This document shows positions 3,434-23,065 of a stretch of 25,503 nt of DNA, piece after piece (the first letter of the stretch is position 1; the number at the start of each line of letters is the position of its first letter). Made by a program: the position numbers and the translations under genes. Source of the stretch: a virus; the IMG/VR virus record IMGVR_UViG_3300002835_000987, positions 1 through 25,503 of that record; one strand, given 5' to 3'. Below the pieces are notes generated by a model that did no database searches, was not told the DNA's origin, and saw only the letters and a list, made by a program, of their open reading frames with translations.

Positions 3434-5672
3434 CACCAATCCTTGCATTTTGCTTGACTGTAATTTCAAATGAAATCTCATCATTAACCAGTACTGCCAT
3501 CACATTAGCATTCTTAATGCTTTCAAACAAAATCTTCTTTGACAGCGGTACACGAACCAATTCATCAATCTTACGTGCTAGAGGACGTGCGCCCATCTTG
3601 CTATCATAACCCTCACGAGCAAGATAGTCAACAACTTCTTCACTAAGGTTAAGTGTGATATTGTGCTTATCAATCAGTGGCTTTTTAAGTTCTTCAACAA
3701 ACTTGATAACAATCTTCTTGATTGAAAGAGTATCTAGCTTGTTAAACTTGCAAATCATATCAAGACGATTGCGGAACTCTGGCTTGAAGAACTGCTTAAG
3801 AGCCTTATCTTCTTCACCGGTCTTATCAAGATTACCGAAACCAATGTTATTGTTTTCGTTGTCGGAAGAACCGAGGTTCGATGTTAGAATGATAAGAGTG
3901 TTCTTCATTGACACCCGCTTACCATTAGAACCAGTAACGGTTCCCTCATCCAACATCTGCAAGAAGATGTTGAAGATATCGGGGTGAGCCTTTTCAACTT
4001 CGTCAAACAGCAGAATAGAATGAGGGTTCTTGCTCAAGTCTGAAATCAAACGCCCGCCCTGCACCTGCGAGTCGCCGAAGCCTACGTAGCCTGGGGGCGG
4101 ACCAATTAAGCTGCTTACGCTGTGCTTCTCGCTGTATTCCGACATGTCATACTTAAGAAGCGGCATATCCAAATTCTTAGACAGCAGCTTAGCCAATTCA
4201 GTTTTACCCGTACCCGTTGGGCCCAAGAACAAGAAACTTGCGATAGGTTTAGTATCATTGCCGATACCTGCAAACGAAACATAGACACGTTCAAGAACCT
4301 TGTCAACCGTTTCATCTTGACCATAGAGTTTATTCTTGACATTCATATCAAGATTCTGTACACGGTCTAAATTGTCGCCGGAGAGTTTGTCTACCGGAAC
4401 GCCTGTGAACTTTTCTACCTGTTCATAGATAAGTTCCTTAGTGATAATTGCATCCTTGTTCATAAGAACACGCTGCTTTGCGCAAGCCGCATCAAGCAAA
4501 TCGATTGATTTGTCAGGGTTCTTACGATCATGAATATAGCGGTCTGCTAGTTCTACCGCAGTGCTAACTGCTTCTTGACTGATATTAACTTCATGGAAGT
4601 CATTCAATCGTGCAGCAAGACCTGAAAGAATGCGAACAGTAGAATCCTTGCTAGGTTCATCGATGCTCACCCGATAGAAACGGCGCATCAACGCACGGTC
4701 CTTTTCAAAGCTCTCATAGAACTCTTCCCAAGTAGTACTTGCAATAACCTTAAGAGTGCCCTTAGTGATAGCTGGCTTAATCATGTTTGCAAAGTCAACA
4801 CTACCACCGCCTGCATTGCCTGCGCCTTGCATAGTGTGTGCTTCATCAATAAAGAGAATCGCCTTCTTCTTTACATTGAGTGCATCAAGAACGTTCTTGA
4901 CCTTTTCTTCAAAGTCACCGCGATAGCGTGAACCCGCAAGTAGTGAACCGACTTCAAGGCTATACAGTTCGTGGTCAAGCAAGAAGTCAGGGACTTCCTT
5001 GTCAACAATAGCATTAGCAATGCCTTCTGCGATTGCAGTCTTACCAACGCCGGGGTCACCAACCATCAATACGTTGCTCTTGAAACGCTTAGCAAGAACG
5101 TTGACGATATCATCAATTTCCTTAGTACGACCAATGACAGGTTCAAGCTTTTCTTCGCGGGCAAGCTGTGTAAGATTAATCGTATATTCTTCAAGAATAT
5201 CATCTGCTTGATTAGCTGTGATGGCAGTCATACTATCGTCACCGCGGTAATATTTTTGCCAGTGATTCAAGAAATCAACCTTAGATACGCCATACTTTAG
5301 AAGAAAATAATGTGCGTGGCTGTTACTTTCACTAGCGATACTCATGTAAAGATCAATTGTAGAAACTTGTCTACGACCAGTAAACAATACCTGAGTGACG
5401 CTGCGATTCATCACACGCTCAAGAAGATTAGTTCGTTTCGGTTGAATATCGGGATCAGTCGATACAATAGACTGTAGACTGTTCAAATACATTTCGATTT
5501 CTTGAATCATCAATTCAGTGTCTACGTTAAATCCAGTAAGACACTTCTTAAATGGTGCATGTGTAACCAAAGACAAAAGAAGATGTTCAACGGTAACATA
5601 TTCATGTTGATACTTCTTAGCGGCTTCGATTGCTCGTGCTACGATATTTTCAATTTCGGGTGAGGGTTGCAA
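3405..5672 (-). CDS. clpA: ClpA-like AAA+ unfoldase
   Basis: A 755-aa two-ring AAA+ protein, close to the length of E. coli ClpA (758). In order: Clp N-domain (1-140); D1 with Walker A GDPGVGKT (205-212), pore loop GSRYRGDFEEK (247-257) and Walker B LFIDEAH (273-279); D2 with Walker A GPTGTGKT (484-491), pore loop GPPPGYVG (524-531), Walker B LLFDEVEKAH (554-563) and sensor-2 GARPLAR (694-700). The D1-D2 linker is short, with no ClpB coiled-coil M domain, so it is ClpA/ClpC-like rather than a ClpB disaggregase. NNIGFG holds IGF (610-612) where ClpA has its IGL ClpP-docking loop. The start is TTG at 5672 behind AAAGGAAAG; no nearby ATG exists. It follows dnaJ and carries its own CATAAATA box. 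No clpP is in the window, so it may work with host ClpP. Confidence 0.9.
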   Translation of the reverse strand: MQPSPEIENIVARAIEAAKKYQHEYVTVEHLLLSLVTHAPFKKCLTGFNVDTELMIQEIEMYLNSLQSIVSTDPDIQPKRTNLLERVMNRSVTQVLFTGRRQVSTIDLYMSIASESNSHAHYFLLKYGVSKVDFLNHWQKYYRGDDSMTAITANQADDILEEYTINLTQLAREEKLEPVIGRTKEIDDIVNVLAKRFKSNVLMVGDPGVGKTAIAEGIANAIVDKEVPDFLLDHELYSLEVGSLLAGSRYRGDFEEKVKNVLDALNVKKKAILFIDEAHTMQGAGNAGGGSVDFANMIKPAITKGTLKVIASTTWEEFYESFEKDRALMRRFYRVSIDEPSKDSTVRILSGLAARLNDFHEVNISQEAVSTAVELADRYIHDRKNPDKSIDLLDAACAKQRVLMNKDAIITKELIYEQVEKFTGVPVDKLSGDNLDRVQNLDMNVKNKLYGQDETVDKVLERVYVSFAGIGNDTKPIASFLFLGPTGTGKTELAKLLSKNLDMPLLKYDMSEYSEKHSVSSLIGPPPGYVGFGDSQVQGGRLISDLSKNPHSILLFDEVEKAHPDIFNIFLQMLDEGTVTGSNGKRVSMKNTLIILTSNLGSSDNENNNIGFGNLDKTGEEDKALKQFFKPEFRNRLDMICKFNKLDTLSIKKIVIKFVEELKKPLIDKHNITLNLSEEVVDYLAREGYDSKMGARPLARKIDELVRVPLSKKILFESIKNANVMAVLVNDEISFEITVKQNARIGDDGIIEIEG

Positions 5673-8365: not shown

Positions 8366-9142
8366 GTGAGCAAACGAAAAACAAGCGCACTAAGAAAAGA
8401 CACACGTTCAACCCGAACTGGTAGAAACGATAGCGGAAAGGCATTCTACATGAATGAATCTAAAACTATTGACTTCAATCAAACCCAACCCAAAAAGGTC
8501 ACACGACCCGTCGAACTGATACCACAGAGTATTAATCAGGAAAAATATATCATAGCATTAACAGACCCTGAAACAGACATCGTTATGGTGAGTGGACCTG
8601 CAGGTACGGGTAAAACCTATCTTGCAATGCTTGCAGCAATTCAGGCAATGCGAACAGGAGATTGTAAGAAAATTCTACTTACAAGGCCCGCGGTTGCAGT
8701 TGACGATGAAAAGCACGGGTTTCTACCCGGTGACTTGAACGCCAAAATGGAACCGTGGGTCAGACCTCTCTTTGATGTTCTTAGAGAGTATTATTCAACT
8801 AGAGAATTGGAGTACATGGTCGAGGAGCAAATAATTGAAATAACCCCACTAGCCTTCTGTAGAGGCCGTAACTTTAAGCACAGTTGGATCATTTTGGACG
8901 AAGCTCAAAATGCAACGCCAAGTCAGATGAAAATGTTAATGACAAGAATTGGTGAGGGCAGTAAAATTGTCATTACTGGCGACGTTGAACAAACCGACAG
9001 AAAAACACTAGATAATGGTCTACTAGACCTAAAACACAAAATTGAAACTCACAAAGTTCCAGGTATGGTAACATGTGAATTTGACATGAAGGATATTAGA
9101 AGACATAAGATAATTGAACACATCTTAAATATGTATTCGTAA
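8366..9142 (+). CDS. phoH: PhoH-family ATPase
   Basis: 258 aa, GTG start with AGGAG 7 nt upstream. After a basic, disordered 45-residue N-terminus comes the PhoH P-loop domain: Walker A GPAGTGKT (77-84), the family block LLTRPAVAVDDEKHGFLPGDL (104-124), Walker B WIILDEAQNATPSQMKMLMTR (174-194) and VITGDVEQTD (202-211). PhoH proteins are RNA- and DNA-associated ATPases or helicases, common in marine phages; their role in infection is unsettled. It is the only plus-strand gene of the window, divergent from the 8191 operon and convergent with 9457-9155, so it forms its own transcription unit ending at the bidirectional terminator. No phosphate-control site is evident. Confidence 0.92.
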   Translation: MSKRKTSALRKDTRSTRTGRNDSGKAFYMNESKTIDFNQTQPKKVTRPVELIPQSINQEKYIIALTDPETDIVMVSGPAGTGKTYLAMLAAIQAMRTGDCKKILLTRPAVAVDDEKHGFLPGDLNAKMEPWVRPLFDVLREYYSTRELEYMVEEQIIEITPLAFCRGRNFKHSWIILDEAQNATPSQMKMLMTRIGEGSKIVITGDVEQTDRKTLDNGLLDLKHKIETHKVPGMVTCEFDMKDIRRHKIIEHILNMYS

Positions 9143-9884: not shown

Positions 9885-10808
9885 TTAAGCTGTTAATTCT
9901 ACTAGTGTTGCTGCTAGACTAATCTCAGGGATGCCAACGAGGGGAAGATTAGCAAGACCATTGCGAATTATAATGATTGCTGCATCTTTACGTTCTTGGT
10001 TATTGCCCCAAAGATCAAGATTGTCATACATCCAGCGATAGCAGTCTTCGATACGAGTTGGATATAGACTGATATACTGCATCAACTGTTGACGACCTTC
10101 AATAATCTTGCCACTCTTGAACAAGTCAGTTGCAGCAATCAACAGTTCATCTTCGCCACTGCCAGTTGACTGTGGCTTATTGAGTTTACCATCAACACTG
10201 TTCTGCTGTAGCTGATTAAGACACTTGCGAAGATCGGGATAGCATCCACGAACATATGTGTCGAGGTCATCAAGATCAAAATCAACGCCTTCAGTAATCA
10301 ATACAGTGGCAGCACGAGTTGTATACTCTGTAATGTCTGGCTTAGCAATATGAAACTCTTGACAACGTGACTTCAACGCAGGGATAATCTTATGCTGATA
10401 GTTACAAGTAAGAACATATCTAACTGTTTGGTGATAAGCTTCCATATCGTTACGCAGTGCTGCTTGCGCGGGTTGTGAAAGATAATCAGCCTCATCTAGC
10501 AGAACGACTTTAAAGCTGCCGAAGGGCATTGTTTGAACAAAGCCATTGATTCGTTCACGCATATTGTCAATGCCGTTCTCACGAGACGCATTGATTTCTA
10601 GCACATCGAATTCTTCAACACCTAGTTCGTTGATGAGAACTTTTGCAAGAGTCGTTTTACCTGTGCCAGGATCACCTGACAACAATAGATGAGGAATGGA
10701 CTTATCAAGAATCCAGCGTTGTACAATTTGTTTCTGATTTTCGTCAACGAATACATAATCTTCTACCTTACTAGGGCGATACTTCTCAACCCATAATTGA
10801 TTTTTCAC
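9885..10808 (-). CDS. 44: Sliding-clamp loader ATPase subunit, T4 gp44 type
   Basis: 307 aa (T4 gp44 is 319), GTG start with AAGGA upstream. AAA+ motifs of the RFC/clamp-loader family: LWVEKYRP at the N-terminus, Walker A GDPGTGKT (45-52), Walker B VVLLDEAD (101-108), sensor-1 VLTCNY (132-137) and the arginine-finger SRC box LKSRCQEF (145-152), then the C-terminal collar domain. With gp62 it would load the gp45 clamp for replication and, in T4-like phages, support late transcription; neither partner is in the window. It lies 3 nt after a small membrane protein gene and heads a three-gene block to 9155. Confidence 0.92.
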   Translation of the reverse strand: MKNQLWVEKYRPSKVEDYVFVDENQKQIVQRWILDKSIPHLLLSGDPGTGKTTLAKVLINELGVEEFDVLEINASRENGIDNMRERINGFVQTMPFGSFKVVLLDEADYLSQPAQAALRNDMEAYHQTVRYVLTCNYQHKIIPALKSRCQEFHIAKPDITEYTTRAATVLITEGVDFDLDDLDTYVRGCYPDLRKCLNQLQQNSVDGKLNKPQSTGSGEDELLIAATDLFKSGKIIEGRQQLMQYISLYPTRIEDCYRWMYDNLDLWGNNQERKDAAIIIIRNGLANLPLVGIPEISLAATLVELTA

Positions 10809-11100: not shown

Positions 11101-11469
11101 TCAATATTCTTTATCTGTCATTGTGTAATCTTGTACTGGTGTTTCGCTAATTAATAAAATATCGTTTGGATCTACCTTACGGATCGTTTTCTCGCCTTCA
11201 GAGTCTTCAATGGTCATACCACGACTCCAGCGACCGTGTGCTATCATAATATAATCACCTACTTTAAGGTCTTCTTTACATTTAGGTCCTATTGAGTATA
11301 TTTGCGCCCATCTTGGACGAATCCCTGCGCTTTTCATATCATCGTTAATCATGATGATGCCACCACGACTTAGACGCTCTCTGAATTCCATCCCGTGAAC
11401 TAGGATGTGATCTCCAATTGCTTTAAACTCTTTAAACTTTGTTGTAGATAAGTTACGTTTTTCTGCCAT
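11101..11469 (-). CDS. GroES-like co-chaperonin, T4 gp31 functional type
   Basis: 122 aa, longer than GroES (about 97) and near T4 gp31 (111). After a short N-tail, FKAIGDHILVHGMEF is the first strand of the Cpn10 barrel. ERLSRGGIIMINDD (31-44) matches the flexible mobile loop that binds GroEL, with GIIM in place of GroES GIVL. KVGDYIMIAHG and DPNDILLI are the final Cpn10 strands. The insertion RPRWAQIYSIGPKCKEDL fits the conserved turn before the V-GD segment. It should cap host GroEL for folding of the major capsid protein. It starts 3 nt after the stop of the 152-aa gene. The C-tail (PVQDYTMTDKEY) is extra. Confidence 0.8.
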   Translation of the reverse strand: MAEKRNLSTTKFKEFKAIGDHILVHGMEFRERLSRGGIIMINDDMKSAGIRPRWAQIYSIGPKCKEDLKVGDYIMIAHGRWSRGMTIEDSEGEKTIRKVDPNDILLISETPVQDYTMTDKEY

Positions 11470-11472
11470 ATA

Positions 11473-11931
11473 TCAATCTTTGCTAGGATCAAACGAGTCC
11501 GGTGCCTCACTTGCAGGCTTAATTTTAATCTTCTTAGATTCTTGTACTAAGTTTGCTTCTAAGGCTTTAGCTGCTTCGATAGCTTTAATTCTATCAATTG
11601 TTTCATCTTCCTCAGTAGTATCCAAAAACTCTAGTTCTTCTTCTACTAACTGTGATAAGTCAATTTTAGTTTCGGGAGCAGGTGCTGATTCAATAGGCGT
11701 GAAGCTATCTACTTGCTTTTTCTTTACGATATTTGCTGCTCGGTTACTGACAGTCTTTTGGTATCTGTCTCCGACCTTTTTAGTTACCGGTAATACAATT
11801 TTACCAGTAGCATCAATAGTATCGCCTCTAGCATTAACGCTCATATTACCTACTGCGCGGGCTCTTTCGTTTTTGGCAGCAAGTTGCGACATATCAACTA
11901 CCTTACCCATTGCTGTTCTATATTTTGCCAT
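11473..11931 (-). CDS. Conserved-type phage protein with basic head and acidic tail
   Basis: 152 aa. The N-terminus MAKYRTAMGKVVDMSQLAAKNERARAVGNMSVNARGDTID is a Gly/Asn/Arg-rich basic block I recall from unnamed proteins of T4-like marine phages. The middle is Lys-rich (NIVKKKQ); the C-terminal half is acidic and helical (LVEEELEFLDTTEEDE). No catalytic motif or membrane segment. Start: GAGGAG 5-6 nt upstream of the ATG and a CATAAATA box 17 nt away, so probably late. It is followed by the GroES-like gene. Function unknown. Confidence 0.65.
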   Translation of the reverse strand: MAKYRTAMGKVVDMSQLAAKNERARAVGNMSVNARGDTIDATGKIVLPVTKKVGDRYQKTVSNRAANIVKKKQVDSFTPIESAPAPETKIDLSQLVEEELEFLDTTEEDETIDRIKAIEAAKALEANLVQESKKIKIKPASEAPDSFDPSKD

Positions 11932-11969: not shown

Positions 11970-12479
11970 CTATTTTAAAAATTCACTGACATCAAGATCA
12001 TAGTATATCGGATTGATTTTGTGAATTCCAATAAGAAACAAGACAAAACTACTTACGCATGATCCTCTTCCCACACCCCAAACAATGTTATTATTTCTCA
12101 TGGTGTCAACTAGATATTTCAAATACTTAAGTAGTATTAACATATCTCGTTCCTGAAACATTAATAGTTCTTCTCCTGCTCGTTGCAGTTCAGTTTCAGA
12201 TTGACATTGGTCTAATACGAATTTAGCTATGTCAAATGTTTGGTATTCAGACGGGAAGTGCCATGTGTTACTTGATTGAATATCGAAATCTTCGATAGAA
12301 ATATCTAGTTTTTGATATTTTTTTACTTTAGTAGGCGTTTTTAAATCTAATGAGTCATCAAACAAAATATCGTTTTCTACTAATATTTCTCTTTTGGTAG
12401 AGAATTCAGTGTTGGTTAGATACAAATCTACCAAATCATTCTCATTGAATATTAACTGACCATACTTATCTTTGAACAT
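11970..12479 (-). CDS. DnaE/PolC-like palm fragment, not a complete polymerase
   Basis: 169 aa. The last 70 residues match the start of the palm of bacterial DNA polymerase III alpha: helical ERDMLILLKYLKYLVDTMRNNNIVW, then GVGRGSCVSSFVLFLIGIHKINPIYYDL and SEFLK, the counterpart of GPGRGSgaGSLvaYaLgITdiDPLkydLLFErFLnPER. The reading frame stops here, just before the PDFDxDF block that carries the catalytic aspartates, so it cannot be a polymerase alone. The rest of DnaE is not in any frame in the 38-nt gap downstream. The N-terminal 90 residues are unrecognised. No ribosome site; a leaderless-type promoter (TTGAAA-17-TAAGAT-6-ATG) precedes it. Confidence 0.65.
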   Translation of the reverse strand: MFKDKYGQLIFNENDLVDLYLTNTEFSTKREILVENDILFDDSLDLKTPTKVKKYQKLDISIEDFDIQSSNTWHFPSEYQTFDIAKFVLDQCQSETELQRAGEELLMFQERDMLILLKYLKYLVDTMRNNNIVWGVGRGSCVSSFVLFLIGIHKINPIYYDLDVSEFLK

Positions 12480-12515: not shown

Positions 12516-13070
12516 TTAATTTTTAGCCGTTTCTCGCCAAGATAAGCCCAAACCAGTCCAATCATCATTAAATAATTTGATTACTTTATTGTGGTCTATG
12601 CCATCAGTTGCATGATTCGTGATTGCTAAACAGGGACTGTTCCACCAGTATTTTCCACTAAATGTACTTTCTGCTGTTTCTGATACTAAATTAAATCTTA
12701 CTCCGTCGCTCATAGTTGAACCTATAACCAAATCAGTAATCTTTAATCTATTTTCCATAATGCTGTTAAGCTTAAGTAACAGTACCATTGCTATAATTTG
12801 ATCATATGGTTCTTGTGGTAATTCACATACTCTCAAGTCCACATTTTCATACTTCTTAATGATATCACTATTAGCTGAGTTTACAAATACTGAATTAGTA
12901 ATTAATTCGCTCAACAAATAGATAGCTCTATCCATTGCAATATTTTGTTCTTTGATTGAATCAGTTTCTACCAACATAGATACAGTTATGTCATACACAT
13001 TCACATGAAATTTGTTTTCAAAATACAAGCCTGTTTGAAAACAGAAATCTCGTTCAATACGGGTGTGCAT
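12516..13070 (-). CDS. Unknown phage protein
   Basis: 184 aa from ATG 13070 (MHTRIERDFCFQTGLYFENK), 2 nt after the stop of the 79-aa gene. It reads like a globular alpha/beta protein: a strand-rich N-terminus (FHVNVYDITVSMLVET), helices (MDRAIYLLSELI, IIAMVLLLKLNSIME) and VIGSTMSDGVRFNLVSE. The C-terminus has aromatic/His-rich KYWWNSPCLAITNHATDGIDHN. I do not recognise a family. The hydrophobic IIAMVLLLKL stretch is too short and amphipathic for a clear membrane segment. The next gene downstream is the DnaE-like fragment, with its own promoter. Confidence 0.55.
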   Translation of the reverse strand: MHTRIERDFCFQTGLYFENKFHVNVYDITVSMLVETDSIKEQNIAMDRAIYLLSELITNSVFVNSANSDIIKKYENVDLRVCELPQEPYDQIIAMVLLLKLNSIMENRLKITDLVIGSTMSDGVRFNLVSETAESTFSGKYWWNSPCLAITNHATDGIDHNKVIKLFNDDWTGLGLSWRETAKN

Positions 13071-17977: not shown

Positions 17978-20900
17978 TTAAGCAAATGTCGCTCCGACTG
18001 TATACCAGTCAGTTGAAGTCGGTGCTACGTATTGTAATGTTGCGCCGGCTGAGTGTGAGTACGCCGTGTTAACTGTTCCGCCATTGATATCAGCACCTGT
18101 ATTAGGCCAAACCGAAAGAGCGTTAGCAGACGTATTAGTGATAGTGATTATCATGCCAGGAGTAGCTACTGGTAATTTTACCCCAGTATTCAATAGTGGT
18201 ACTACTGTACTGACTACATTTATTTCTTTAGTAAGAGCAACTGCGGTCCCTTGAGTGAGTCCTAACGCAATAATACCTGTCTCTACTGAACGAATATGGT
18301 ATCCGGTCGCAACAATATTTGCACCTGAGATAGTGTTGCCGGCTGCTGTAATATTGCCAGAGGCTGTAATAAATGCAGTGGTAACGTTTCCGGATACAGC
18401 AAGTGAAGTGAGAGTACCAACACTTGTAATATTAGGTTGAGCAGCAGTTGTTACAGTACCTGCCGTGGTTGCGCTTGTCGCAGAACCAGCAGTAGCAACA
18501 CTTAGGTTTGCAACTTGAGTTGTACTTGTAACTATGAATGGAGCAGTGCCGGTAGCTACATTAGATATTAACTGAGGAGCAGTTACGTTTGCGGTAGCAA
18601 GTACTCGTGCCGTTCCCAAATTACCCACATTAGCATTACCGGAAGCACTCAATGTGCCAGTTACAGAGAGAGTGTGTCCTGGATTAGTATTAGCAATACC
18701 AACATTGCCAGTACTTGCTACTCTCATCTTTTCAGTAGGGACACCACCTTGCGCTGCGTTTGCAGTATTGAATACAATCGCACCAGGTGCCGAACCTGAT
18801 CCTGACGTATATGTAGCATCAACAATAGAGGTGATAGATGCAGCAGTATTAGGACTGAATCCATCCCAACCTCTAAAATTAATTTCGCCCAACTGATCAC
18901 CATTTAATACTTCGGTGTAAGTGGTAATGTTGCCTCTATATCTTTCAAGCGAAACATCATATGATACAGCAGCAGTAGGTCCAAAATACGCACCAGATAC
19001 CGTCGACGGTGTAATGGTTGTAACAAAATTAGTTCCATCTGATTTAGATAGATTACCGATAACATTACCGACAAACGTAGTTGCAGTTAGACCACCATTT
19101 GCTAAATTAGCACTAAATGCTGTATTTGAGTTAAGTGCATAGTTGCCATTTGCAGTAGCAGAGATAAACGCCGGATAATAAGTACCAGTTGATCTCACGT
19201 TATTCAATACTGCCGCTGCGTTAGTTGCTGAAGTTGCTGTAGTTGCTGAACCTGCGGTTGCTGCATTTAAGTTTGCAACCTGAGTAGTTGAGGTAACCAC
19301 AAGCGGAGCAGTACCAGTAGAAACATTTGAGATAAATTGAGGAGCAGTAACGTTAGCAGTTGCAAGTACTTGTGCTGTGCCTAGATTGCCTACGTTAGCA
19401 TTACCTGATACACCTAATGTACCTGTTACATTGGCACCTGTTGATGTAGCAGTGATTCTAGTAGTACCAGCTACACCTAAGTTAACATTTCCACCAGCTG
19501 CGGTAACTACGACATTTGAAGTACCGTTCTGTAGCAAACCACTGTTGATAGTAGTAATATTACCAGTAGTAATGATTGCTGTTGCAGTACCTAAGTTACC
19601 TACGTTAGCATTGCCTGTTGCGTTGATTGTGCCATTACCAAACACTATATTTGCTGTTACGTTACCTACGGTTAACCCAGTTACCGTTCCGACAGAAGTG
19701 ATATTTGGTTGTGCGTTTGTTGTTACTGTACCAGCAGTTGTAGCAGAACCAGCAGTTGTAGCAGAACCAGCAGACGTTGCAAATGTTGCGTTAGCAACAG
19801 TACCAGTAACATTAGCTCCGGTTAGATTTGTTAAGTTTGCACCATTCCCGGAAAATAAGTTAGACGTAATTGTTCCTGTAGTAACAGAAACGTTGCCGGC
19901 GCTGATAGTTCCACTTACCAATAACGTAGTTAAAGTACCTACACTCGTGATATTAGGTTGTGCGTTTGTTGTTACTGTACCGGCGGTTGTTGCTGAACCA
20001 GCAGTTGTTGCAGACCCGGCCGTAGCAACGCTCAAGTTTGCAACTTGAGTTGTACTTGTAACTATGAATGGAGCAGTACCAGTTGCTACGTTAGATATTA
20101 ACTGAGGAGCAGTTACGTTTGCGGTAGCAAGTACTCGTGCAGTCCCTAAGTTTCCTACGTTAGCATTACCAGTAACATTTAATGTAGTGTCTATAGCAAG
20201 TGAAGTTAGCGAACCAACACTCGTAATGTTTGGTTGAGCAGCAGTAGTTAATGTACCGGTAATATTTGTTGCAGTAATGTTACCTGCACCAACATTGCCG
20301 GTTACCGTCACCGCACCGGCTGATAGAGTGCCGCTAGTTTTATTAAAGGTTAAATTAGCGTTACCTGCATAAGTCGAGCCACCGTCATTGAAAATAACTT
20401 GAGAATTAGCGCCTTGTGCAGGAACTAGAGTTGCAGTGTCCCAAGTTAGATTGCCACTACCATTAGTTCTTAAGAATGCATTTGCGACACCGCCGGTAAT
20501 GATGACGTTGCTATTTGGTCCTAAATTACTTACTCCAGAAACATTTAGTCCAGTTAATGTACCTACGCTAGTGACATTAGGTTGTGCAGCAGTTGTTAAG
20601 TTGCCGGCAAGCGATGTTGCTGATATATTTCCTGCTGTGATGTTTCCGGTAACATTGGCATACCCTGCAATGTTAGCTCCTGCATTGGTTACTACTAATA
20701 CGTTAGCGGTACCACCTGACGTAATTCTAACATTGCTATTATTGTCTACTCTTACTTCAGAGGTTCCGTTGATAATAAATGAACCAGTACTTACTGAAAT
20801 GTTTGTTAATAAACTACCGTCACCTTGGAAGAAGTTTGCTCTAGCAAGATTGCCTAAGTTAGCGTTGCCTGATGTGATATTACCGGTAACACCAATTGAG

Positions 20901-23065
20901 GTTAGAGTGCCAACCGATGTAATATTTGGTTGAGCAGCAGTTGTCACTGTACCGGCAGTAGTTGCGCTTGTAGCAGCGCCAGATAGGGCACCGACAAACG
21001 TAGTTGCAGTAATAGAGTTGTTTGATAGATTAGCAGTTAGGCCAGTACTTGTTAATTCTGCTACATTGCCTGTTGCTGCATTTGCAAAAACAATGAAGTT
21101 ATTTCCTGTACCTGCGGCTACATTGATGTTATCTGCAACGTTAGCATACGCAACGTTCAAGTTACTAACACGAGTAGTAGATGTTACTGTCAATGGAGCA
21201 GTACCAGTTGCTACGTTTGAGGTTAATGTACTTGCGACAACCGCAGTAGTTGCATTTAAATTGCCAACGTTAGCATTTGCGGTTACTGCAACTGAGCTTA
21301 GTGTACCAACACTAGTGATATTTGGCTGTGCTGCTGTTGTTACTGTGCCGGCGGTAGTAGCTGCACCACTTAATGCACCAACGAATGTAGTTGCAGTGAT
21401 GGAGTTATTTGATAAGTTAGCGATAAGACCTGTACTTGTTAGTTCTGCAATATTGCCTGATGCTGCGTTTGCAAAAACAATGAAGTTATTTCCTGTTCCG
21501 GCAGCTACACTCATCAAATCAGAGACATTTGCTTGAGCAACATTCAAGTTTGCAACACGAGTAGTCGAAGTGACTGTTAATGGAGCAGTACCAGTTGCTA
21601 CGTTTGAGATTAAAGTACTTGCAGTAATGTTGCCGGCTGTTGCAAAGTTGCCTGATGTAGTTGTGCCGGTAACTCCTAATGATGTTAGTGTGCCAACTGA
21701 TGTAATGTTTGGTTGAGCAGCAGTTGTTACAGTACCCGCTGTAGTGGCACTTGTTGCAGCACCAGACAGAGCGCCTACAAACGTAGTTGCAGTGATAGAG
21801 TTGTTTGATAAATTAGCAGTAAGACCTGTGCTTGTTAATTCTGTTACGTTACCTGTCGCCGCATTTGCAAAGATAAGGAAGTTATTTCCCGTTCCAGCCG
21901 CTACACTGATGAAGTCGGCAACGTTTGCATAATTAACATTTAGGTTTGCAACACGAGTTGTACTCGTGACTACGAGTGGAGCAGTGCCGGTTGCAACGTT
22001 ACTAATCAATTGGGGTGTAGTTACGTTTGCAGATGCAAGAACTTGCGCTGTTCCTAGATTACCTAGGTTAGCGTTACTAGTTGTACTGATGACACCGACA
22101 ACGGTAAGTCCAGTAGTAGTAAAGTTAGCTCTTGCAGTACCGTTTACAAATACAGATACGTTACCAGCAGCAGCAGGAATGCTTACGTTTGAGTTACCGT
22201 TTGCTAATGAACCAACTAAGTTACCAGCAGTTATGTTTCCGGTAACTGCTAATGCGCCGGAGATGTTTGATCCAATAGAAGTTACGACCATTGTGGTAGT
22301 ACCAGCAATCACAATATTTAGATTGCCGCCAGCATCACTGATGTTAGCATAACTGGTGCCATTTAAAATTCTAGTATTTGCTAATGCAGATACATTAGTA
22401 AGATTGCTGCCGTCTCCGTAGAAGAAGTTAGCATTTACAATATTAGCGTTAGCGTTGCCTGTAATATTAGCAGATGCAGCAGAGATCGCAGCAGTGGCGT
22501 TTACATTCCCTGCATTAACATTTGCCGTTACATTTGCATTAGTGGTTACGTTTAGGTTACCAGTAACATTGGCATTGGCATTTACTACTAACGTATTACT
22601 AATTATATTGTTGGATATTAAATTGGCTGTAGTAGATATATTACCTGTAAAACTAGCAGTGTTCCCGTTAATCTGTGCGTTAACATTTACTGTTTGAGCA
22701 GTCAATGTACTTGATAATTGTAAGTTAGCAACTCCTGTAATAGTTGACGGGAGGTTGATGACAAGAGGGGTAGAGCCTTGCGTTACAACTGCTAGTGGTC
22801 CAGGTGTTCCGGCTCCGGCAGAAAGATTTAAAGTAGTACTTTCTGCTCTAACTTGCGCAATATTAGCACTGATAATAACGTTTCCAGTAGGAGAGTTAAC
22901 TGTAGTACCAGTGCCTGGAACTCTGTTAACTGACAACACTGCCTGTTCTTGCAAGCCAGAAAATAATTCTGTAAAGTTTTCTTGTACCTTTTGGAATGCT
23001 GTTCTGATTGCATCCGCATTTGGATCATCCGGGAAACTACCAAAATCTATATTTTTTTGGGCCAT
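17978..23065 (-). CDS. Giant repetitive tail fibre protein
   Basis: 1695 aa, extremely rich in Ala, Asn, Thr, Val, Gly and Ser with almost no charge, as in long fibrous phage adhesins. Residues 1-40 (NIDFGSFPDDPNADAIRTAF, then QKVQENFTELF) form a likely baseplate-anchoring end. The shaft has at least eight (A/N)AQPN(I/V)TSVG repeats and three tandem copies of a ~130-aa unit (SNVATGTAPL...GNNF...ANLSNNSITATTFVGALSG). Near residues 1330-1480 is a globular insert (YFGPTAAVSYDVSLERYRGN; EKMRVASTGNVGI), the common GNVGI fibre motif. The last 100 residues (IALGLTQGTAVAL to DWYTVGATFA) form a beta tip. No S74 peptidase motif was seen. Late-type box and AGGAT ribosome site precede it. Confidence 0.85.
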   Translation of the reverse strand: MAQKNIDFGSFPDDPNADAIRTAFQKVQENFTELFSGLQEQAVLSVNRVPGTGTTVNSPTGNVIISANIAQVRAESTTLNLSAGAGTPGPLAVVTQGSTPLVINLPSTITGVANLQLSSTLTAQTVNVNAQINGNTASFTGNISTTANLISNNIISNTLVVNANANVTGNLNVTTNANVTANVNAGNVNATAAISAASANITGNANANIVNANFFYGDGSNLTNVSALANTRILNGTSYANISDAGGNLNIVIAGTTTMVVTSIGSNISGALAVTGNITAGNLVGSLANGNSNVSIPAAAGNVSVFVNGTARANFTTTGLTVVGVISTTSNANLGNLGTAQVLASANVTTPQLISNVATGTAPLVVTSTTRVANLNVNYANVADFISVAAGTGNNFLIFANAATGNVTELTSTGLTANLSNNSITATTFVGALSGAATSATTAGTVTTAAQPNITSVGTLTSLGVTGTTTSGNFATAGNITASTLISNVATGTAPLTVTSTTRVANLNVAQANVSDLMSVAAGTGNNFIVFANAASGNIAELTSTGLIANLSNNSITATTFVGALSGAATTAGTVTTAAQPNITSVGTLSSVAVTANANVGNLNATTAVVASTLTSNVATGTAPLTVTSTTRVSNLNVAYANVADNINVAAGTGNNFIVFANAATGNVAELTSTGLTANLSNNSITATTFVGALSGAATSATTAGTVTTAAQPNITSVGTLTSIGVTGNITSGNANLGNLARANFFQGDGSLLTNISVSTGSFIINGTSEVRVDNNSNVRITSGGTANVLVVTNAGANIAGYANVTGNITAGNISATSLAGNLTTAAQPNVTSVGTLTGLNVSGVSNLGPNSNVIITGGVANAFLRTNGSGNLTWDTATLVPAQGANSQVIFNDGGSTYAGNANLTFNKTSGTLSAGAVTVTGNVGAGNITATNITGTLTTAAQPNITSVGSLTSLAIDTTLNVTGNANVGNLGTARVLATANVTAPQLISNVATGTAPFIVTSTTQVANLSVATAGSATTAGSATTAGTVTTNAQPNITSVGTLTTLLVSGTISAGNVSVTTGTITSNLFSGNGANLTNLTGANVTGTVANATFATSAGSATTAGSATTAGTVTTNAQPNITSVGTVTGLTVGNVTANIVFGNGTINATGNANVGNLGTATAIITTGNITTINSGLLQNGTSNVVVTAAGGNVNLGVAGTTRITATSTGANVTGTLGVSGNANVGNLGTAQVLATANVTAPQFISNVSTGTAPLVVTSTTQVANLNAATAGSATTATSATNAAAVLNNVRSTGTYYPAFISATANGNYALNSNTAFSANLANGGLTATTFVGNVIGNLSKSDGTNFVTTITPSTVSGAYFGPTAAVSYDVSLERYRGNITTYTEVLNGDQLGEINFRGWDGFSPNTAASITSIVDATYTSGSGSAPGAIVFNTANAAQGGVPTEKMRVASTGNVGIANTNPGHTLSVTGTLSASGNANVGNLGTARVLATANVTAPQLISNVATGTAPFIVTSTTQVANLSVATAGSATSATTAGTVTTAAQPNITSVGTLTSLAVSGNVTTAFITASGNITAAGNTISGANIVATGYHIRSVETGIIALGLTQGTAVALTKEINVVSTVVPLLNTGVKLPVATPGMIITITNTSANALSVWPNTGADINGGTVNTAYSHSAGATLQYVAPTSTDWYTVGATFA
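18492..20180 (-). repeat. Long-range direct repeat within the fibre gene
   Basis: 18506-18547 and 20036-20077 are identical over 42 nt, and 18561-18610 and 20091-20140 over 50 nt. The offset is exactly 1530 nt (510 codons). They encode TANVTAPQLISNVATGTAPF-type segments. Confidence 0.75.
20898..22017 (-). repeat. Three tandem ~390-nt repeats in the fibre gene
   Basis: Three similar units at about 21683-22017, 21296-21617 and 20898-21229. They encode SNVATGTAPL, then VAAGTGNNF, then ELTSTGL, then NSITATTFVGAL, then AAQPNITSVGTL in the same order, with substitutions mostly in the spacer residues. Confidence 0.75.

What the first reader, a model, noticed from the sequence alone, without database searches (positions are those of the whole stretch)
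11970..12479. Stand-alone DnaE palm fragment that stops just before the catalytic aspartates
The protein carries the GxGRGSxxxS ... LxGI..I.P..Y.L...FL run of bacterial DNA polymerase III alpha, the part that contacts the incoming nucleotide triphosphate. It ends at the position of FLNPER, before PDFDxDF. It has its own promoter-like site and a clean frame, so it does not look like random decay. A T4-like phage normally uses a family B polymerase, so a C-family piece is odd. It might act as a nucleotide sensor, a decoy for host replisome parts, or a subunit of a split enzyme.
Basis: partly seen in the sequence, partly recalled or inferred. Interest (0 to 1): 0.65.

Follow-up and report, generated by a model that had tools for sequence, protein, structure and literature searches.

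The report
Half of a split phage DNA polymerase
This small phage gene encodes the nucleotide-gripping half of a bacterial-type DNA polymerase whose other half, carrying the catalytic acids, is a separate gene far away in related phage genomes; such split enzymes were first reported from computer analysis in 2021 and no laboratory test of one was found.

Summary
Window 11970-12479 (minus strand) encodes a 169-aa protein matching the N-terminal part of the DNA polymerase III alpha palm (Pfam PF07733, E 6e-10; phrog_11127 over nearly its full length, E 1e-41). The stop just before the catalytic aspartates is not decay: all 86 homologues fetched from public contigs end at the same place.

The missing piece exists. 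Related phages carry a second, distant gene (phrog_11778, about 190 aa). In most it begins with its start codon fused to the catalytic motif, M-PDIDIDF, and continues with the third aspartate (KxD) and fingers motifs. The window protein ends at E. coli DnaE position 393; the partner starts at 399. Equivalents of D401, D403, K553 and D555 are present in all 178 partners examined. All seven complete phages checked carry both genes; T4, KVP40, P-SSM2, PTm1 and phiKZ carry neither. The partner is not in this 25.5-kb window.

Iyer et al. 2021 already described a split minimal Pol III alpha in jumbo phages; this is a new member of that kind. Polymerase activity and its role beside the family B replicase are inferred, not shown.

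The parts
11970..12479 (-). N-terminal, NTP-binding subunit of a split Pol III alpha-like polymerase (169 aa, phrog_11127)
12204..12479 (-). phage-specific N-terminal region (residues 1-92), no similarity found outside phrog_11127; may dock to another replisome part (inference)
11976..12203 (-). Pol III alpha palm-like region (residues 93-168), equivalent to about E. coli DnaE 320-393
   Evidence: AF2 model pLDDT 88 and Foldseek
12048..12077 (-). GxGRGSxxxS motif (residues 135-144), equivalent to E. coli DnaE G359-S364 and following; triphosphate-binding loop by homology
   Evidence: GxGRGS present in 78/78 family members; invariant columns
11970..11984 (-). conserved C-terminal end EFLK plus stop, about five residues before the position where the partner protein begins
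   Evidence: 86/86 end at EF[LIM][KR]
11473..11931 (-). conserved downstream neighbour with NARGD motif (phrog_14844), function unknown
   Evidence: 85/86 eligible loci, same strand
11101..11469 (-). gp31/GroES-like co-chaperonin or head morphogenesis protein (phrog_931)
   Evidence: 76/76 eligible loci
9885..10808 (-). gp44-like sliding clamp loader (phrog_168)
   Evidence: E 4e-72; 64/65 eligible loci
12516..13070 (-). conserved upstream neighbour of unknown function
   Evidence: 69/89 eligible loci, same strand

Best explanation
The gene encodes the N-terminal subunit of a two-protein, minimal C-family (Pol III alpha-like) DNA polymerase of T4-like, mostly jumbo, phages. It supplies the GxGRGS loop that holds the phosphates of the incoming nucleotide. 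A separate protein (phrog_11778), encoded far away in the replication module, supplies the metal-binding aspartates (PDIDIDF and KxD) and reduced fingers. The two are inferred to join without covalent linkage and rebuild one active site in trans, beside the phage's family B replicase. Shown: homology, the fixed and complementary break point, invariant catalytic residues, co-occurrence, no intein. Inferred: binding of the two proteins, polymerisation, and a low-processivity role (the thumb, PHP and C-terminal domains are missing), perhaps primer extension or gap filling, because one gene sits by the clamp loader and the other by primase-helicase.
For: Homology of the window protein; AF2 model (pLDDT 88) whose 14 best Foldseek PDB matches are all Pol III alpha/DnaE (weak E-values of 0.02-0.7, probability up to 1.00). 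Partner found. Its start (M-PDIDIDF) maps to E. coli M399-PDFDVDF, while the window family ends at 392/393; the same holds for M. smegmatis DnaE1, 406 and 413. D401, D403, K553, D555, fingers R and P, and H invariant in 176/176 partners, two others read by eye also intact. AF2 model of the partner (pLDDT 87): its 15 best PDB matches are all Pol III alpha. Co-occurrence: 7/7 complete phages have both, 5/5 control phages have neither; 14 of 15 IMG/VR contigs of 170 kb or more have both (some of these contigs are redundant). A family B polymerase is present as well. Fixed settings: N gene near gp44 in 64/65 loci, partner near primase in 101/101 and gp41 in 88/90. Independent prior proposal: Iyer et al. 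2021, PMC7824862.
Against: The partner is not in this 25.5-kb window, so pairing in this very phage is inferred from relatives. The pair lacks the thumb, PHP, and clamp/tau-binding domains, so processive synthesis is doubtful. Sequence similarity to cellular DnaE is weak for the partner (PDB best E 0.003).
Confidence: 0.87

Rival explanations
1. The two proteins form a Pol III-derived nucleotidyltransferase that is not a DNA polymerase, for example a primer-modifying, protein-modifying or signalling enzyme.
For: The thumb and all template-holding domains beyond short fingers are absent; the pair totals only about 360 aa.
Against: The fingers motifs (RP, FKKxHxxxYA) are as invariant as the aspartates; the partner gene sits in the primase-helicase block and the N gene beside the clamp loader.
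Confidence: 0.2
2. The 169-aa protein works alone as a nucleotide sensor or as a decoy for host replisome parts.
For: It is a separate protein that keeps the triphosphate-binding loop.
Against: The exactly complementary partner is present in essentially every complete or large genome that carries it. The conserved stretch is the nucleotide site, not the alpha regions that contact the clamp, tau or epsilon (general knowledge of Pol III).
Confidence: 0.06
3. Local truncation, frameshift or assembly error of a full-length polymerase gene.
For: The protein ends abruptly inside a domain.
Against: 86/86 homologues end at the same residue; no partner sequence lies anywhere in the window in any frame.
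Confidence: 0.01
4. The two halves are rejoined by an intein, trans-splicing or similar, as in cyanobacterial split DnaE.
For: Split DnaE with inteins is a known phenomenon (general knowledge).
Against: The N half ends at EFLK with no extension and the partner starts at or within a few residues of the motif; there is no room for intein segments.
Confidence: 0.02

Closest known systems
Split minimal Pol III alpha of group 2.2 jumbo phages (Iyer et al. 2021, PMC7824862); phrog_11127 + phrog_11778
   Same: N-terminal NTP-binding protein and separate C-terminal metal- and template-binding protein from distant genes, together with a family B polymerase
   Different: The window comes from an uncultivated phage known only from metagenome contigs; the break point, residue invariance, gene settings and spread (hundreds of contigs, one complete 142-kb phage) are worked out here. 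The paper's text gives no accession numbers for the pair.
Truncated 172-aa Pol III alpha CBB_328 of phage vB_PcaM_CBB (PMC5259590)
   Same: Same gene family, noted as truncated
   Different: The authors did not link it to a partner gene in the passage read
Bacterial Pol III alpha (DnaE), Pfam PF07733
   Same: Palm fold segment and GRGS loop; the partner has PDFDxDF, KxD and fingers motifs
   Different: One chain of about 1100 aa with PHP, thumb, clamp-binding and tau-binding parts; here two chains of about 360 aa in all
Cyanobacterial split DnaE with inteins
   Same: The polymerase is encoded by two distant genes
   Different: Split at another position (general knowledge) and rejoined by intein splicing; no intein here

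Membership tests
Split minimal Pol III alpha, N subunit (phrog_11127) | Full-length match to the family | tested here: met
   E 9.8e-42, residues 4-169, model 10-171 of 171
Split minimal Pol III alpha, N subunit (phrog_11127) | GxGRGS motif kept and chain ends before the catalytic aspartates | tested here: met
Split minimal Pol III alpha, N subunit (phrog_11127) | Distant partner gene with PDxDxDF, KxD and fingers in the same genome | tested here: inconclusive
   Met in relatives; not in the 25.5-kb window itself, where the rest of the genome is not available
Split minimal Pol III alpha, N subunit (phrog_11127) | Coexisting family B polymerase | tested here: inconclusive
   Met in 14/16 and 10/10 related records; the window is too short to tell
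Split minimal Pol III alpha, N subunit (phrog_11127) | The two proteins bind and are active | not testable with these tools
   needs experiment
Full-length C-family DNA polymerase (DnaE/PolC) | All three catalytic aspartates in one chain | tested here: not met
Full-length C-family DNA polymerase (DnaE/PolC) | PHP, thumb and C-terminal domains | tested here: not met
   Lengths of both proteins and mapping to E. coli DnaE; no full-length Pol III hit in the phage records
Cyanobacterial intein-split DnaE | Intein halves at the junction | tested here: not met

The most novel reading that the evidence does not exclude
The two proteins assemble in trans into a working, thumb-less DNA polymerase whose single active site is divided between two gene products (phosphate grip on one, metals on the other), and it serves the phage replisome as a second polymerase at the hand-over from primase to clamp-bound family B replicase, its activity switched by assembly.
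Probability: 0.3. Interest if true: 0.72.

Novelty: new member of a known kind. Interest (0 to 1): 0.47.

Why it matters
Cellular Pol III alpha is a large single chain. A pair of small proteins that split its active site between the phosphate-binding loop and the metal-binding aspartates, kept across hundreds of phages, would give a very small C-family polymerase and a natural two-part, switchable one. It would also raise the question of why a phage with a family B replicase keeps a bacterial-type polymerase. The exact break point and residue mapping found here make a direct reconstitution experiment simple.

Tried and rejected
Searching complete phages with PF07733 and PF17657 at first suggested there was no partner: the only hits beyond the N gene were a chance frame in GAP32 (56579-56737, in the dCMP deaminase frame) and weak ones in Atu_ph07 and GAP32. 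The weak Atu_ph07 hit proved to be the partner. The own-promoter claim is not above chance. Trying to assign a partner contig from the same sample as a near-identical copy of the window (L251, from the sample of L006) by tetranucleotide profile failed: r = 0.58, lower than contigs from other samples. The phage-specific N-terminal 90 residues gave no convincing hit outside the family. One contig (G016) that seemed to have a long N-half in fact carries a one-piece 563-aa Pol III in addition to the partner gene. The decoy, sensor, truncation and intein readings are set aside, as listed under rivals.

Full report
What is there. The minus-strand ORF at 11970-12479 encodes 169 aa. Its residues 93-168 match the first third of Pfam PF07733 (E 6.3e-10, above the curated cut-off), and residues 4-169 match phrog_11127, a 171-position phage family labelled 'DNA polymerase', from position 10 to the last (E 9.8e-42). 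The AF2 model built on 74 relatives has mean pLDDT 88. Its 14 best Foldseek PDB matches are all Pol III alpha/DnaE structures, although single E-values are modest (0.02-0.7).

The stop is a fixed feature. Scans found at least 571 relatives in IMG/VR and six in bacterial bins, the latter most likely phage contigs binned with bacteria. All 86 fetched copies end at EF[LIM][KR]-stop, and GxGRGS is kept in 78 of 78 members counted. The same gene is in phages SCTP-2, Atu_ph07, PAC2 (PA5oct-like), GAP32, 121Q and others. The gene order is fixed: in loci with enough flank, the NARGD protein is found in 85/86, the gp31-like protein in 76/76 and the gp44 clamp loader in 64/65, all on the same strand.

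Where the rest is. The complete relatives carry a family B polymerase and no full-length Pol III. Literature search found that Iyer et al. 2021 (PMC7824862, section 3.4.1) had reported, for 'group 2.2' jumbo phages, a phage-specific minimal Pol III alpha split into an N-terminal NTP-binding and a C-terminal metal- and template-binding protein from distant genes. No accessions appear in the text read. Following a weak PF17657 hit in Atu_ph07 led to phrog_11778, which then matched 13 of the 16 records that carry the N gene. The three without it are contigs of 114-121 kb and may be incomplete.

The fit of the two pieces. The partner begins, often right at its start codon, with M-PDIDIDF: the nearest start codon lies one or two residues before the first aspartate in 78 of 80. 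It continues with KxD(F/I/L/M)L, IRP and FKKxHxxxYA. Profiles of both families aligned to E. coli DnaE place the end of the first at 392/393 and the start of the second at M399 (PDFDVDF begins at P400, so D401 and D403; KFDFL gives K553 and D555). On M. smegmatis DnaE1 the positions are 406 and 413. So only five or six residues of the cellular protein are missing between the two. The partner lacks much of the region between D403 and D555 that holds the thumb (about 60 against about 150 residues), and its fingers are short. D401, D403, K553, D555, R and P of FRPGP, and H of NKSHS are invariant in 176 of 176 aligned partners; Phosso and RAS14, read separately, keep them too. The AF2 model of the partner has pLDDT 87, and its 15 best PDB matches are all Pol III alpha.

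Co-occurrence. Seven complete phages (SCTP-2, Atu_ph07, PAC2, GAP32, Phosso, RAS14, Slickus01) have both genes; T4, P-SSM2, KVP40, PTm1 and phiKZ have neither. Of 15 IMG/VR contigs of 170 kb or more that were checked because they carry one gene, 14 have both (some are near-duplicates). Slickus01 is 142 kb, so the pair is not confined to jumbo phages. The partner sits in the replication block: primase downstream in 101/101 loci and gp41 helicase in 88/90, same strand.

Mechanism. By homology with the Pol beta-like nucleotidyltransferase palm (general knowledge), the GRGS loop holds the nucleotide phosphates and the three aspartates bind the metals. Here these are on different polypeptides, so an active site must form between two chains. 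That they bind, and that they polymerise, is inferred. The missing thumb, PHP and C-terminal domains argue for short-range synthesis. The gene settings suggest work near primer and clamp loading, but this is the weakest step.

Limits. The window itself is a 25.5-kb contig and does not contain the partner. Its near-identical copies L006 and L007 do not extend it enough, and composition did not link a partner contig to it. The claim for this phage rests on its relatives.

Verdict. Real, well conserved, and best read as one half of a split polymerase. Because the kind was described in 2021, it is a new member rather than a discovery; no experimental work on it was found in the library searched.

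Noticed in passing
Atu_ph07 212336-213688; contig of L058 49857-52191; PAC2 202949-206726; Slickus01 3596-5100: The family B polymerase itself appears split into two open frames in several of these phages.
   Followed up: no
contig of L139 (G016) 83456-83704 and 76476-77018; L209: A phage contig carries both the split-type partner gene and a one-piece 563-aa PHP-less Pol III with its own GS motif, PDVDIDF and fingers.
   Followed up: partly
contig of L085 (G009) 22766-23005 (+) and 94662-94901 (-): Two identical-scoring copies of the N gene in opposite orientation in a 117-kb contig; an inverted repeat or an assembly artefact.
   Followed up: no
window 8366-9142: PhoH is the one neighbour on the opposite strand, here and in 52 of 53 related loci.
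   Followed up: partly
window 11473-11931: Protein with an N-terminal VNARGDxIDxxG motif lies just downstream of the polymerase half in 85/86 loci; unknown function.
   Followed up: partly
window 17978-23065: 1695-aa ORF made of repeats rich in ANVTGN / VTTAAQPNITSVGTLT, fibre-like.
   Followed up: no
L086-L091: Bins named Saccharibacteria, Rickettsiales, Pelagibacter, Neomarinimicrobiota and Methylophilaceae contain this phage gene, probably misbinned phage contigs.
   Followed up: no
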